14,277 nucleotides of DNA, taken from assembly GCA_023300205.1 (NCBI GenBank), contig JALZVD010000166.1:1-14277 (forward strand), in the 5' to 3' direction. This document shows, piece by piece, positions 6,022 to 13,557 of this stretch. This stretch comes from Akkermansiaceae bacterium (GTDB lineage Bacteria; Verrucomicrobiota; Verrucomicrobiia; Verrucomicrobiales; Akkermansiaceae). Each line of letters begins with the position of its first letter. Position 1 is the first letter of the stretch. The notes beneath the pieces were generated by a model, which worked only from the letters and a program-made list of their open reading frames with translations, searched no databases and was not told the origin of the DNA. A program made the translations under genes and the position numbers.

Positions 6022-6300
6022 ATGGAACTCGACTTAATAGACACCCTAATTGACCTCAAGGAATACAAACCTCGTGAAATAGAAGAAGTAATGGAAGATC
6101 CATTCACCATCAGACTCCTTCCAGATCACGAGCGAGAAGATGGAGAATCTCGCTATTACATGATTGGCAGAACCATCGCAGACCGCTACCTCTTCCTCTG
6201 CTTTTGGACTGACGGAAAAAAAGCAAGAATCATCTCCGTAAGAAACCTCACTGAAGGTGAAAAACGCTTCTATGACAGACGCTACGCTGAATTCAAATAA
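6022..6300 (+). CDS. BrnT-like type II toxin
   Basis: This 92-residue protein resembles the BrnT family of RelE-fold ribonuclease toxins over most of its length: DPFTI (26-30), an acidic segment then GESRYYMIGRT (41-51), a hydrophobic strand (YLFLCFW), and the diagnostic C-terminal RIISVRN...EGEKRFYDRR (69-87). The usual N-terminal start with a WD..K...N..KHG-like helix is not recognisable; the segment before DPF is short and acidic. The toxin gene comes first and the antitoxin second, as in brnTA. No Shine-Dalgarno site precedes the ATG. Two TATAAA elements, at 5978-5983 and 5995-6000, are possible -10 boxes. The known role of the family is growth inhibition by RNA cleavage when the antitoxin is lost; here the function rests on similarity and the neighbour. 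Confidence 0.75.
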   Translation: MELDLIDTLIDLKEYKPREIEEVMEDPFTIRLLPDHEREDGESRYYMIGRTIADRYLFLCFWTDGKKARIISVRNLTEGEKRFYDRRYAEFK

Positions 6301-6320
6301 CTCATCTAAAACATCTTCAC

Positions 6321-6608
6321 ATGAAAACTATCAAAAACTGGACAGACCTTCCCGAGTTTAAAAATGAAAAAGAAGAACATGACTTCTGGCAAAAACATGA
6401 AATCCAAGGCGATCTCATGAACGGTTCTGTCCACGAGCCTGATTCACGTGAATCTACCACCATCACCCTTAGATTCGACCCCAGAATGCTATCTCGTATC
6501 AAGCGTATGGCTCGTAGTCGCTACCTAAACTACCAGTCCATGATGAAACAATGGCTCTCCGAACGCCTAGAAGATGAGACCCGCCGCTCGTCATCTGACT
6601 CTAAGTAG
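6321..6608 (+). CDS. CopG-family antitoxin (BrnA-like)
   Basis: This 95-residue protein has the two parts of the CopG-type antitoxin family that partners BrnT-like toxins. The N-terminal segment LPEFKNEKEEHDFWQKHE (10-27) corresponds to the family's FxSExEEaeFWexH-type opening. A ribbon-helix-helix domain (about 46-83) follows, with the TTITLRF strand, a basic first helix, and NYQSMMKQWLSERL as the second helix. It should neutralise the toxin encoded 20 bp upstream and bind DNA as a dimer, repressing the pair's own promoter. The nearest symmetric site is the 26-bp palindrome at 5926-5951. No Shine-Dalgarno sequence is visible, so its translation may be coupled to the toxin gene. Confidence 0.8.
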   Translation: MKTIKNWTDLPEFKNEKEEHDFWQKHEIQGDLMNGSVHEPDSRESTTITLRFDPRMLSRIKRMARSRYLNYQSMMKQWLSERLEDETRRSSSDSK

Positions 6609-9664: not shown

Positions 9665-11866
9665 ATGCCCGCCAAAAAAACAACGAGAAAGTCGACCAAA
9701 AAAACGGCACGTAAATCGACGAAAAAAAAACCGTCCACCTCCTCTCCCCCATCTCGTCCGCCACGTCCCAAAATAAAATTTGGCGCTAAAAAACGCACCA
9801 ACAGAAAACCATCCACCTCCTCTAACTCCAATAACATCTTCACTGGCATCTGGCGTATCCTCACCTCTCCATTCCGTTACACCCATCAGAAAACCCAAAC
9901 CTGGTCATCCTTTTCTAAATGGGCAACTCGCCTCTTCATCCCCCCCGCATTCATTGGACTTCTTTGCTTCATCATCCTCTGGGCCATCTACAGCACAAGA
10001 GCTAGCTTCATCTATGATCAAGACCTCGTTGCTAAAATGCCTTCGCGCAGCACCATCTTTGATAGACACGGTGAACCCATTGGCCACCTCCACGGCGACA
10101 ACCGCTTCATCGCAAAATACGAAAACGTCTCAGACAACTTCATCAAAGCTCTCATCGCTCGTGAAGATTCCAGATTCTACCAGCACAGCGGAGTAGACCT
10201 CCGTGGTCTCGCCAGAGGCGTCAAGGTCATGCTCATAGATGGCAGACGTGAAGGCGGCTCCACACTCTCCATGCAGCTCGCCGATAACTCATTCGACTAT
10301 AACGGCAAAAGCATCGACGGCAAATTACTAGAAATGGCACTCGCCAGAAAAATTGAAGCAGATTTCGAAAAAAAACAAATCCTAGAAATGTACATGAACC
10401 GTATCTTCTGGGGCGGCTCCATCAAAGGCATCGAATCTGCATCCAGAAATTACTTCGAAAAATCAGCCGCCCAACTCACCCTCGCAGAATCCGCCATGCT
10501 TGCCGGAATCATCAGTGCCCCAAATGCATTCACTCCATTCAGGCACCTAGACCGCGCTATCAAGAAGCGAGACATCACCCTACGCTCCATGGTCGAATAC
10601 AAGCTCATCACCCAAGCAGAGGCAGATGCAGCCATGAACGAAGAAATACATATCCGCCCACCAGAGCGCCGTATGAACAAAAAATCCTACGTCATGTCCA
10701 CACTCCAGCGCGAGCTAGACATCATTCTTGAGAGAAATAACATCAAAATGGGAGGCCTTACCATCAAGACAACCCTAGACTTAGAACTCCAGAAAAACGC
10801 CGAAAGCGCACTCCAAGAACACCTCCGCGATATCGAGCGTAAGCCATCCTACTTCCAAACCCACCAAACCCACTCTCAATACAGCAACATCCGCCACAAC
10901 AACCGTCGTGACCCAAAATACGTCCAAGGCGCCCTCGTCTGTATCGAAAACCACACCGGCGCCATCGTCTCCATCGTTGGAGGCAGAAACCCCTACCACT
11001 CAGAATACAACCGCGCCATCAGCGCCAGAAGACAAATCGGCTCCATCTTTAAACCCTTCGTCTTCCTCGCCGCATTTGATAAAGGAATGAACCCTCACCA
11101 ATACGTCAGTGATGACAGAATATTCAGAGGTGAAATAACAGGAGCTGACCCTAACTGGCACCCCAAAAACTCAGACAACACCTACCGAGGCAGCATCAAA
11201 ATCTCAGACGCACTCGCTCAGTCACGGAACACCCCAGCCATCAGAGTCGGGAATGTCGCAGGCTTAGACAACGTCATCTACACCGCCAAACAAGCAGGCT
11301 TTAAGCAAGCCATCCCAGAGCAACCATCCATCTACCTCGGTGCATTCAGCGCAACCCCGCTAGAAGTTGCCACAGCCTACACCGCATTCCCTAATGACTG
11401 CATCGTCTACCGTCCATTCCTCATCAATGAAATTATCGATGAAGATGGCACCACCGTCTACCATGGCTCAGGCATCGTCGGCTGGGACAACCACTCTTCA
11501 AGAACCGCCTCTCGTGCAGTCTCTAACATACTAGAGCAAGTCACCACTAACGGCACCGCAAGCCGCCTCAGAACCACTCACGGATTCCATAAACCAGCTG
11601 CGGGTAAAACGGGCACCACCAATAAATCACGTGATGGCTGGTTCGCCGGCTACACCTCAAGACTCACCTGTGCAGTCTGGATCGGCATGGATGACAACTC
11701 ACCCATCTACCCTGGCGCTACTGGAGCATCACTCGCTCTTCCTGTCTGGGCAGACTACATGAAAAAAGCAGACTCCAGATACCCCGCAGGATCCATTAAA
11801 AACCGCGCCATCATCGTAGAGCCTAACTCCGTAAACACCCCTCCAAGAGCCACCATCGTAGAATAA
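9665..11866 (+). CDS. Class A penicillin-binding protein with intact transpeptidase domain (PBP1A/1C type)
   Basis: This 733-residue protein has a strongly basic cytoplasmic tail (1-50: 14 Lys, 6 Arg, no acidic residue), a membrane segment at about 89-110, a GT51 glycosyltransferase domain (about 130-300) and a transpeptidase domain (about 415-700). All transpeptidase motifs are present: S460-x-x-K463 (GSIFKPF), S520-R-N522 and K648-TGT. The GT51 domain keeps the candidate catalytic E167 (EDSRFYQHSG) and E223 (GKLLE). However, motif 2 reads STLSMQLADN with D207 where lysine is usual, and G219 stands where an arginine normally precedes KxxE. Class A PBPs polymerise lipid II into glycan strands and crosslink peptides on the periplasmic side. 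The start is the first ATG, without a Shine-Dalgarno site. The second PBP gene follows after 8 bp. Family and transpeptidase activity are firm; glycosyltransferase strength is in doubt. Confidence 0.93.
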   Translation: MPAKKTTRKSTKKTARKSTKKKPSTSSPPSRPPRPKIKFGAKKRTNRKPSTSSNSNNIFTGIWRILTSPFRYTHQKTQTWSSFSKWATRLFIPPAFIGLLCFIILWAIYSTRASFIYDQDLVAKMPSRSTIFDRHGEPIGHLHGDNRFIAKYENVSDNFIKALIAREDSRFYQHSGVDLRGLARGVKVMLIDGRREGGSTLSMQLADNSFDYNGKSIDGKLLEMALARKIEADFEKKQILEMYMNRIFWGGSIKGIESASRNYFEKSAAQLTLAESAMLAGIISAPNAFTPFRHLDRAIKKRDITLRSMVEYKLITQAEADAAMNEEIHIRPPERRMNKKSYVMSTLQRELDIILERNNIKMGGLTIKTTLDLELQKNAESALQEHLRDIERKPSYFQTHQTHSQYSNIRHNNRRDPKYVQGALVCIENHTGAIVSIVGGRNPYHSEYNRAISARRQIGSIFKPFVFLAAFDKGMNPHQYVSDDRIFRGEITGADPNWHPKNSDNTYRGSIKISDALAQSRNTPAIRVGNVAGLDNVIYTAKQAGFKQAIPEQPSIYLGAFSATPLEVATAYTAFPNDCIVYRPFLINEIIDEDGTTVYHGSGIVGWDNHSSRTASRAVSNILEQVTTNGTASRLRTTHGFHKPAAGKTGTTNKSRDGWFAGYTSRLTCAVWIGMDDNSPIYPGATGASLALPVWADYMKKADSRYPAGSIKNRAIIVEPNSVNTPPRATIVE

Positions 11867-11874
11867 ACTCATCT

Positions 11875-13557
11875 ATGAACCAAGCCACTAGAGCACATAA
11901 AAAAAGACTCTCACTTCCAGAATGGACACCCAGCTGGCTTAAAATACTGATCAAATTAGGCCTCCGCATCACATTCATATGCACCATCCTCATCATCATC
12001 GTATCCCTATTCTACTACTACCTCGCCTCACAATATAACCTAGACCAAGTAGCAGAAGTCACCCAGCCTAACCTCATCCTCGCAGAAGACAGCTCTCAAC
12101 TCGCCGCTATTGGCGGAGACTCACATAAGCTAGTCACTTATTCACAAATCCCCCCCCACCTAATCCAAGCCCTCCTCACCCGTGAAGACAGCAGATTCCG
12201 TGACCACATCGGGATCGACATCTGGGGCCTAGGACGCGCCACCCTAAAGAACCTCGCCACCATGTCCTACCAAGAAGGAGCCTCCACCATCTCCATGCAG
12301 CTCACCAAAAACACCTTCGACAACAAATCAAAATCCCTCCACAGAAAACTCCTAGAAATAGCCATCACACTCAGACTCGAATCCAGATACGACAAAAACG
12401 AGATCCTCACCCACTACCTCAACCGCATCTACTTCGGCAGCGGATCATACGGCATAGAAGCAGCCGCTAACACCTACTTCGGAGTCCCCACAAGTAAGCT
12501 CACCCTAGGTCAGTCCGCACTCATCGTAGGCATCATCCGCGGCCCCCACATCTTCTCACCATTCAACAACCTAGAAAAAGCCACCGCCCAGCGTGATCAA
12601 GTCCTAGAGCGCATGCACAGCACAGCAAAAATCACCGAAGAACAAAAAATAACCGCCATTAAAGCCCCTCTAAATTTAGCGGATAAATCCCAACAACCCA
12701 CCAACTCCAGCTACGCTGTGACATCCATACGCAGACACCAGCGACAAATCATAGACACCTCAGAAATCAACCAAGGAGGACTCACAATCACCTCCACCAT
12801 CAATAAAAAACTCACAGACACCATCACATCAGACATCAAAGAAATCACCTCAACCATCAACCAAAATAACGACACACCACTCCAAATCGCAGTCGTCATC
12901 CTAGAAAATAAAACCGGCGCCATCCGCACCATCATTGGAGGATCAGACTACCGTAAATACCCATACAACCGCGCACTAGACAGCAAACAAGAACTAGGAG
13001 CCGCATTCTCACCATTCATCTACCTAGCTGCTCTAGACAGAGGAAAAATCCCACTGAAAAATCAACCCATCATCTCAGCCCAACAAATCGGAACCAAAGA
13101 ACTCCTCGGATACTGCTCCAGATTCAGCATCACCCACAAACCAGCAGCAGAACCCAATGACCTCTATCGAGGCAGCATCTATGCCTCGCCACTCCAGCTC
13201 GCCAGTGCCTTCTCCATCATCCAGAACAAAGGCATCCTTGCAGAATCCTACTTCGTTGAAAACATCACCAACAAAGACTCCACCATACTATTCTCGAACA
13301 CAACCTACCAAAAAGAAACCACCTCAAACGGAGCCGCCATCAATTGCCTAAACATGCTCACAAAAAACATCAGCGGAAAAAGAACCATCCAGCTCACAGC
13401 CTCTCCATACAAACACCTCTGGGTCATCACCTCAACCGCCAAACACACAGCCGTCATCTGGGCTGGTCACGACCTCCCAAAAACCATCCCTGATCAATCA
13501 GACCTCACTAATAAACTTTCCTCTATGAGCCTCATTTGGTTACAATCTGCTAAATGA
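11875..13557 (+). CDS. Class A PBP paralogue: intact GT51 domain, degenerate transpeptidase domain
   Basis: This 560-residue protein has a short basic tail, a membrane segment at about 28-50, a complete GT51 domain (about 70-240) and a reduced transpeptidase-like domain (about 335-555). GT51 motifs are canonical: E104-D-SRF-x-x-H111-x-G, GASTISMQLTKN (135-146, with K145), and R157-K-LLE161. The transpeptidase scaffold is recognisable (GAIRTIIGGSDY, PFIYLAALDRG, SPLQLASAF), but SxxK is replaced by A376-A-F-S379. About 42 residues that include the SxN motif are missing. The KTGT position, aligned by W516 and HTAVIWAGHD, reads IQLT. It should polymerise glycan but cannot acylate a stem peptide or penicillin by the normal mechanism. 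The frame is uninterrupted, so this is not simply a broken gene. It begins 8 bp after the first PBP gene and is surely co-transcribed with it. Confidence 0.9.
   Translation: MNQATRAHKKRLSLPEWTPSWLKILIKLGLRITFICTILIIIVSLFYYYLASQYNLDQVAEVTQPNLILAEDSSQLAAIGGDSHKLVTYSQIPPHLIQALLTREDSRFRDHIGIDIWGLGRATLKNLATMSYQEGASTISMQLTKNTFDNKSKSLHRKLLEIAITLRLESRYDKNEILTHYLNRIYFGSGSYGIEAAANTYFGVPTSKLTLGQSALIVGIIRGPHIFSPFNNLEKATAQRDQVLERMHSTAKITEEQKITAIKAPLNLADKSQQPTNSSYAVTSIRRHQRQIIDTSEINQGGLTITSTINKKLTDTITSDIKEITSTINQNNDTPLQIAVVILENKTGAIRTIIGGSDYRKYPYNRALDSKQELGAAFSPFIYLAALDRGKIPLKNQPIISAQQIGTKELLGYCSRFSITHKPAAEPNDLYRGSIYASPLQLASAFSIIQNKGILAESYFVENITNKDSTILFSNTTYQKETTSNGAAINCLNMLTKNISGKRTIQLTASPYKHLWVITSTAKHTAVIWAGHDLPKTIPDQSDLTNKLSSMSLIWLQSAK

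What the first reader, a model, noticed from the sequence alone, without database searches (positions are those of the whole stretch)
9665..13557. Tandem class A PBPs with reciprocal active-site losses: a split bifunctional enzyme
The two adjacent paralogues look complementary. The first keeps SxxK, SxN and KTGT, but its GT51 domain has D207 and G219 where K (in QLxKN) and R (in RKxxE) are usual. The second keeps those GT51 residues (K145, R157, E104, E161) but has lost all three transpeptidase motifs. The GT51 segments align without gaps (constant offset of 62), so the substitutions are not alignment artefacts. From knowledge of GT51 enzymes, the basic residues contact the lipid substrate phosphates. 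The inference is division of labour: one protein mainly crosslinks, the other mainly polymerises, and the tight gene pair keeps them in equal supply.
Basis: partly seen in the sequence, partly recalled or inferred. Interest (0 to 1): 0.8.

Follow-up and report, generated by a model that had tools for sequence, protein, structure and literature searches.

The report
Cell-wall polymerase and crosslinker split apart
In this bacterium and about half of the sampled relatives in its family, including the gut bacterium Akkermansia, normally two-in-one cell-wall enzymes look as if they have divided the work, one copy keeping the crosslinking site but lacking key polymerising residues and its sisters the reverse; no activity has been measured.

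Summary
P1 (9665-11866) keeps SxxK, SxN and KTGT, but its GT51 domain has D207 and G219 where E. coli PBP1b has K274 and R286, and S284 where it has K355. P2 (11875-13557) keeps basic residues there and has lost all transpeptidase motifs, yet is predicted to fold as a whole class A PBP with a pseudo-transpeptidase domain.

Relatives show more than one odd pair. The TP-dead P2 is a paralogue found widely in Akkermansiaceae. P1 has lost K274 and/or R286 equivalents in four lineages with different substitutions (Rubritalea, g12, g10/g13, Akkermansia): 56 of 113 family genomes, 0 of 14 outgroup genomes. A third class A PBP is also GT-canonical with a dead SxxK (41 of 41).

P1 is canonical in two relatives of the same genus. 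P2 is unlinked in 45 of 96 genomes. Three g12 genomes lack P2 beside an altered P1. E. coli PBP1C also lacks pocket residues. Division of labour is the best explanation; activity is untested.

The parts
9665..11866 (+). P1: class A PBP, 733 aa, transpeptidase motifs intact, GT51 active-site basic residues substituted
10070..10591 (+). P1 GT51 domain
   Evidence: PF00912
10163..10165 (+). P1 E167, catalytic Glu equivalent to E. coli PBP1b E233, kept
10283..10285 (+). P1 D207, aligned to E. coli PBP1b K274
   Evidence: non-basic in 46 of 113 family P1, one per genome
10319..10321 (+). P1 G219, aligned to E. coli PBP1b R286
   Evidence: non-basic in 30 of 113 family P1, one per genome
10331..10333 (+). 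P1 E223, aligned to E. coli PBP1b E290, kept
10514..10516 (+). P1 S284, aligned to E. coli PBP1b K355 (basic active-site residue said to tune the catalytic Glu)
   Evidence: non-basic in 16 of 113 family P1, one per genome
10928..11689 (+). P1 transpeptidase domain
   Evidence: PF00905
11042..11053 (+). P1 SxxK (S460, K463)
11222..11230 (+). P1 SxN (SRN at 520-522)
11606..11617 (+). P1 KTGT (648-651)
11875..13557 (+). P2: TP-dead class A PBP, 560 aa, GT51 motifs intact
12100..12618 (+). P2 GT51 domain
   Evidence: PF00912
12307..12309 (+). P2 K145, aligned to E. coli PBP1b K274
12343..12345 (+). P2 R157, aligned to E. coli PBP1b R286
12706..13554 (+). P2 pseudo-transpeptidase domain (about residues 278-560), predicted folded but without SxxK, SxN or KTG

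Best explanation
The pair is part of a split of class A PBP labour. P1 is the crosslinker: its transpeptidase motifs are intact, while its GT51 domain has lost the basic residues that hold the donor-lipid pyrophosphate, so it should polymerise lipid II poorly or not at all. P2 and the third class A PBP (P3) carry intact GT51 sites on a catalytically dead transpeptidase fold and should make the glycan strands that P1 crosslinks. The P1 GT51 domain is probably kept as a strand-binding or activating module, because its fold and catalytic glutamates stay under purifying selection. Shown here: the sequence pattern, its distribution, its appearance in four lineages and the constraint. Inferred: the activities, any hand-over of strands, and any P1-P2 contact.
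For: Mapping of D207, G219 and S284 to K274, R286 and K355 of E. coli PBP1b. K274A and R286A are said to lose GTase activity, and K287A to lower it by about 40% (passage of PMC6286386). Change of P1 in four lineages with different residues: D/E-N-G in 9 of 11 g1 genomes, E-N-Q in 11 of 14 g12, S/A-D-R in 26 of 26 g10+g13, K with A/S/T at the Arg position in 10 of 10 Akkermansia (g3). 0 of 14 same-order outgroup genomes lack any of the three basic residues, nor do the 19 same-order P1-type sequences (15 from further genomes). P2 keeps all three basic residues in 99 of 99 sequences and P3 in 48 of 49. P2 has no TP motifs but a predicted full class A fold. P3 has Thr in place of the nucleophile Ser in 41 of 41 and no Lys in 39 of 41. 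Two genomes named A. muciniphila hold the same three proteins.
Against: P1 GT51 keeps both catalytic glutamates in 113 of 113 family genomes at the columns examined and its dN/dS is like that of canonical P1, which fits a working enzyme as well as a binding module. New basic residues appear nearby (position 195 in g1 and g10/13, 251 in g10/13, loop lysines in g12) and could compensate. E. coli PBP1C has Gly, Gln and Gln at PBP1b positions 286, 290 and 355, yet GT activity was reported for it (Schiffer and Holtje 1999, recalled, not read). Three g12 genomes have altered P1 with no P2 at its usual spot and none found. 49 genomes have P2 beside or along with a canonical P1. In the control four other conserved columns (176, 308, 264, 199) also change in many P1. 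A same-class genome outside the order (G244) has Ser at the K355 column while keeping the other two.
Confidence: 0.55

Rival explanations
1. P1 remains a working bifunctional enzyme whose GT51 pocket holds the pyrophosphate in another way, through new basic residues or a changed donor step. P2 is an extra polymerase and there is no strict division of labour.
For: The catalytic Glu pair and the Gln271, Thr267, His240 and Lys287 equivalents stay invariant in changed P1. Median dN/dS of P1 GT51 in changed groups is 0.05-0.13, close to its TP domain (0.04-0.18). New basic positions. E. coli PBP1C lacks several pocket residues too.
Against: Three basic residues are replaced at once in 6 of 9 altered g1 genomes, with Asp or Glu at K274 in all 9. 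Single Ala mutants at K274 or R286 are said to be inactive in E. coli PBP1b.
Confidence: 0.27
2. Loss by drift: the GT step of P1 became dispensable because P3, P2 and two SEDS polymerases supply glycan, and P1 and P2 do not work together. The pattern is redundancy, not cooperation.
For: P3 is GT-canonical and two SEDS proteins are present. P2 is unlinked in 45 of 96 genomes and missing beside altered P1 in three g12 genomes. GT51/TP distance ratios are somewhat higher in two altered groups (g12 1.20, g3 1.07) than in most canonical ones.
Against: Drift should loosen the whole GT51 domain, but 17 of 28 conserved columns never change in 113 P1, dN/dS stays low, and the ratios are not raised in g1 (0.81), g10 (0.77) or g13 (0.84).
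Confidence: 0.13
3. P1's cage-less GT51 is an allosteric or strand-receiving subunit in a P1-P2 or P1-P3 complex, so that a bifunctional synthase works in trans (a bolder form of the best explanation).
For: Retained catalytic residues under purifying selection. Order P1 then P2 on the same strand in 51 of 51 loci holding both. The P2 pseudo-TP domain is also predicted folded.
Against: No interaction was tested. Linkage is lost in Akkermansia, g10 and part of g13.
Confidence: 0.15

Closest known systems
Class A penicillin-binding proteins (E. coli PBP1b, A. baumannii PBP1a)
   Same: Domain order, GT51 and TP folds, and the motifs each protein retains.
   Different: In the textbook bifunctional enzymes one chain holds both sites; here the intact sites are in different chains.
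SEDS-class B PBP pairs (RodA-PBP2, FtsW-FtsI)
   Same: A polymerase and a crosslinker as separate proteins (general knowledge).
   Different: The proteins here are class A by descent and carry both domains; two SEDS and two class B proteins are present besides.
Monofunctional GT51 enzymes (S. aureus MGT, MtgA)
   Same: GT51 activity expected without transpeptidation, as for P2 and P3.
   Different: P2 and P3 keep a transpeptidase-like domain; monofunctional enzymes have none (general knowledge).
E. coli PBP1C
   Same: A natural class A PBP whose GT51 lacks several of these residues.
   Different: PBP1C also has Gln at the E290 position; P1 keeps both Glu. It is not one of a tandem class A pair.

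Membership tests
Class A PBP (P1) | GT51 plus transpeptidase domain in one chain behind an N-terminal membrane helix | tested here: met
   PF00912 and PF00905 over cut-off; long helix 82-116 in the model; membrane insertion itself not predicted
Class A PBP (P1) | SxxK, SxN, KTG intact | tested here: met
   121 of 121 sequences of the P1 set
Class A PBP (P1) | GT51 catalytic Glu pair intact | tested here: met
   E167, E223
Class A PBP (P1) | GT51 active-site basic residues intact | tested here: not met
   D207, G219, S284 in place of K274, R286, K355
Class A PBP (P1) | lipid II polymerisation | not testable with these tools
   needs biochemistry
Class A PBP (P2) | GT51 catalytic and basic residues intact | tested here: met
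Class A PBP (P2) | SxxK, SxN, KTG intact | tested here: not met
   no SxxK seen among 121 sequences of the P2 set
Class A PBP (P2) | transpeptidase fold present | tested here: met
Monofunctional GT51 (P2) | GT51 domain with no transpeptidase domain | tested here: not met
   a transpeptidase-like domain is retained

The most novel reading that the evidence does not exclude
A repeatedly evolved split of class A PBPs: in several Akkermansiaceae lineages including A. muciniphila, class-A crosslinking rests on one paralogue whose GT51 lost its pyrophosphate pocket, and class-A polymerisation rests on two paralogues with pseudo-transpeptidase domains, the three working as a bifunctional synthase in trans.
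Probability: 0.38. Interest if true: 0.78.

Novelty: new variant of a known kind. Interest (0 to 1): 0.62.

Why it matters
Class A PBPs are the textbook case of polymerisation coupled to crosslinking in one chain. A lineage in which nature has separated the two sites while keeping both folds would test whether coupling needs one polypeptide and what the spare domains are for. It reaches Akkermansia muciniphila, which can be grown. It predicts that beta-lactams act on one class A PBP there and moenomycin-type inhibitors on the others.

Tried and rejected
Relaxed selection on P1 GT51 was expected if the domain were dead. dN/dS did not show it (median dS is 0.9 or more in nine of the 11 groups, so the ratios are rough). 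GT51/TP distance ratios are not raised in g1, g10 and g13, but are a little higher in g12 (1.20) and g3 (1.07) than in the canonical groups with more than one pair (0.63-0.97); one g12 canonical pair gives 1.45. I dropped the word 'degenerate'.

A first version of the column control counted six Akkermansia genomes twice and ranked column 284 among the top five. With one P1 per genome columns 207, 219 and 284 rank second, fourth and seventh of 28. The control is therefore weaker than I first had it.

P2 as an exclusive, obligate partner was rejected: unlinked in 45 of 96 genomes, and gone from between P1 and the gene that follows P2 in G137, which abuts P1 in G087.

At first I read genus g3 as lacking P2 (E limit 1e-68). 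Looser searches found a divergent one, so that reading was withdrawn.

Phylum-wide background gave mostly Akkermansia and distant hits whose pocket columns align poorly; I draw no rate from it. One P2-like protein in another family (L323, G295, 3% contamination) may be a stray contig.

Papers: PMC6286386, PMC4810414, PMC12539705, PMC3608906, PMC8119973, PMC8406291, PMC6456298 and PMC7554673 were seen only as passages; in PMC6053601 the terms asked for gave no passage. Terrak 2008 was not held; Schiffer and Holtje 1999 is recalled. Of the ten paper searches no listed title or start of abstract reports this split; two found nothing, the lists of the others were capped or nearly so, and the library lacks most subscription journals.

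Rows dropped before counting: one 178-aa P2 fragment at a contig end (G131); L003, a shorter copy of L007; duplicates within a genome. Of 155 family genomes searched, 113 have a P1 that I fetched and classed. In one search an outgroup genome (G044) with Cys at the N275 column counts as canonical, because the three basic residues are kept; and a g12 sequence (L059) whose Arg column is a gap in that alignment counts as canonical because one search shows DRKLLE. Five g13 genomes listed there as 'no P2 fetched' have P2 places. The tree is FastTree; the P1 clade has support 0.40 only, P2 0.996, and the order of canonical and altered P1 within g12 is poorly resolved, so the number of origins there is uncertain.
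Full report
What is there. The window lies in an unnamed Akkermansiaceae genome (G000, 2.47 Mb, 83% complete). Its genus g1 is probably Rubritalea: contig 1 of G005 has the same length (4159517) as the contig of a protein named Rubritalea profundi. Two class A PBP genes lie head to tail: P1 at 9665-11866 and P2 at 11875-13557. P1 keeps SxxK, SxN and KTGT. P2 has GAAFSP at the SxxK place, a deletion at SxN and no KTG. By alignment to E. coli PBP1b, P1 has Asp, Gly and Ser at K274, R286 and K355, while P2 has Lys, Arg and Arg. Both keep the two glutamates E233 and E290. [quoted passage not shown] PMC8119973 (passage) names K355 as a residue that modulates the catalytic Glu.

Relatives. Among 121 P1-type and 121 P2-type proteins the TP split is complete and most P1 (95 of 121) have a non-basic residue at the Lys position. 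I then searched 155 family genomes with each protein, fetched loci (with for genus g3) and classed 282 GT51 proteins into P1 (133), P2 (99) and P3 (50) by motif, origin and tree. P2 forms one clade (support 0.996). Of 113 family genomes with a P1 fetched, 56 have a non-basic residue at the K274 or R286 column: g1 9 of 11, g12 11 of 14, g10 10 of 10, g13 16 of 16, g3 10 of 10. The fetched P1 of g2, g6, g7, g8, g9, g11, g14, g15 and g16 are canonical, as are 14 of 14 same-order outgroup genomes and the 19 same-order P1-type sequences (five of them from genomes already counted). The substitutions differ by lineage, and on the tree the altered groups lie apart, so about four origins are likely. 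P2 was fetched or located in 52 of the 56 altered genomes. The other four are all in g12: in G105 the P1 frame runs to the end of its contig, and G087, G094 and G119 have no P2 beside P1 and none found elsewhere. In G087, P1 sits next to the gene that follows P2 in G137, so P2 was lost from that place.

Is it decay? Probably not. I chose 28 GT51 columns only by conservation in P2, P3 and outgroup P1, and counted changes in one P1 per family genome. Seventeen columns never change, including both glutamates, and four change once. Seven change in 16 to 53 genomes: 176 (53), 207 (46), 308 (36), 219 (30), 264 (19), 199 (17) and 284 (16). Three columns drawn at random would all fall among those seven about 1% of the time (own arithmetic). 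Changes at 284 occur only in g1 and g3, two of the altered lineages. Median dN/dS of P1 GT51 is 0.05-0.13 in altered groups and 0.09-0.20 in canonical family groups; dS is mostly near or above 1, so this is rough. Distance ratios of GT51 to TP are not raised in g1, g10 and g13, and slightly higher in g12 and g3. The pocket changed while the rest of the active site was kept.

The third protein. P3 (G000 contig 98) has canonical GT51 residues, but its nucleophile motif reads GTAFF: Thr for Ser and Phe for Lys. Thr replaces Ser in 41 of 41 P3 sequences, 34 from the family and 7 from outgroups, and Lys is gone in 39. So in the window genome, as far as it is assembled, the only class A transpeptidase with intact motifs is P1, while canonical class A GT51 sites are in P2 and P3. 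Two class B PBPs and two SEDS proteins are also present. Two genomes named A. muciniphila have the same three proteins: P1 with K-I-S-Y or K-I-A-Y at columns 207, 208, 219 and 284, P2 with R-N-R-R and no SxxK, P3 with R-N-R-K and TxxL. One of them (CSUN-56) has a fourth class A PBP.

How it most likely works. P2 and P3 polymerise lipid II; P1 crosslinks the strands and uses its GT51 domain for something short of full polymerisation, perhaps holding the nascent strand. The activities, the hand-over and any contact are inferred. The main doubt is that P1's GT51 may still work: it keeps its catalytic residues, has new basic residues nearby, and E. coli PBP1C also lacks pocket residues. PMC7554673 (passage) says PBP1C has no known role under standard conditions; GT activity of PBP1C is recalled from Schiffer and Holtje 1999.

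Linkage. In 51 loci holding both genes, P1 and P2 are on the same strand with P1 first, and in 50 of them the gap between frames is under 280 bases. In the other 45 of the 96 genomes with both fetched, P2 is elsewhere, including all 10 of g3 and all 10 of g10. Tight linkage is therefore not what maintains the pattern.

Verdict. It is a new variant of a known kind, with activity still to be measured.

Noticed in passing
L007 901-3480 (G000 contig 98): Third class A PBP with canonical GT51 and a transpeptidase whose SxxK reads TAFF; Thr at the Ser position in 34 of 34 family and 7 of 7 outgroup sequences.
   Followed up: yes
L211, L212 (G015, G027): Reduced genomes of genus g5 gave a single class A PBP hit each, of the TP-dead P3 type, plus three transpeptidase-family hits of class B size each.
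   Followed up: partly
L343 4014-6326: E. coli PBP1C has Gly, Gln and Gln at PBP1b positions 286, 290 and 355.
   Followed up: partly
L350, L353 (A. muciniphila CSUN-56): A fourth class A PBP, SxxK intact, columns K-N-A-Q, perhaps PBP1C-like.
   Followed up: no
L291 (G244, same class, other order): A class A PBP with Ser at the K355 column but Arg at the other two.
   Followed up: no
window 6022-6608: BrnT-type toxin gene followed by a CopG-type antitoxin gene.
   Followed up: no
window 9665-9830: P1 begins with a Lys/Ser/Pro-rich tail of about 55 residues with low predicted confidence ahead of the helices.
   Followed up: no
L323 (G295): P2-type protein in a genome of another family of the order; that genome has 3% contamination, so it may be a stray contig.
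   Followed up: no
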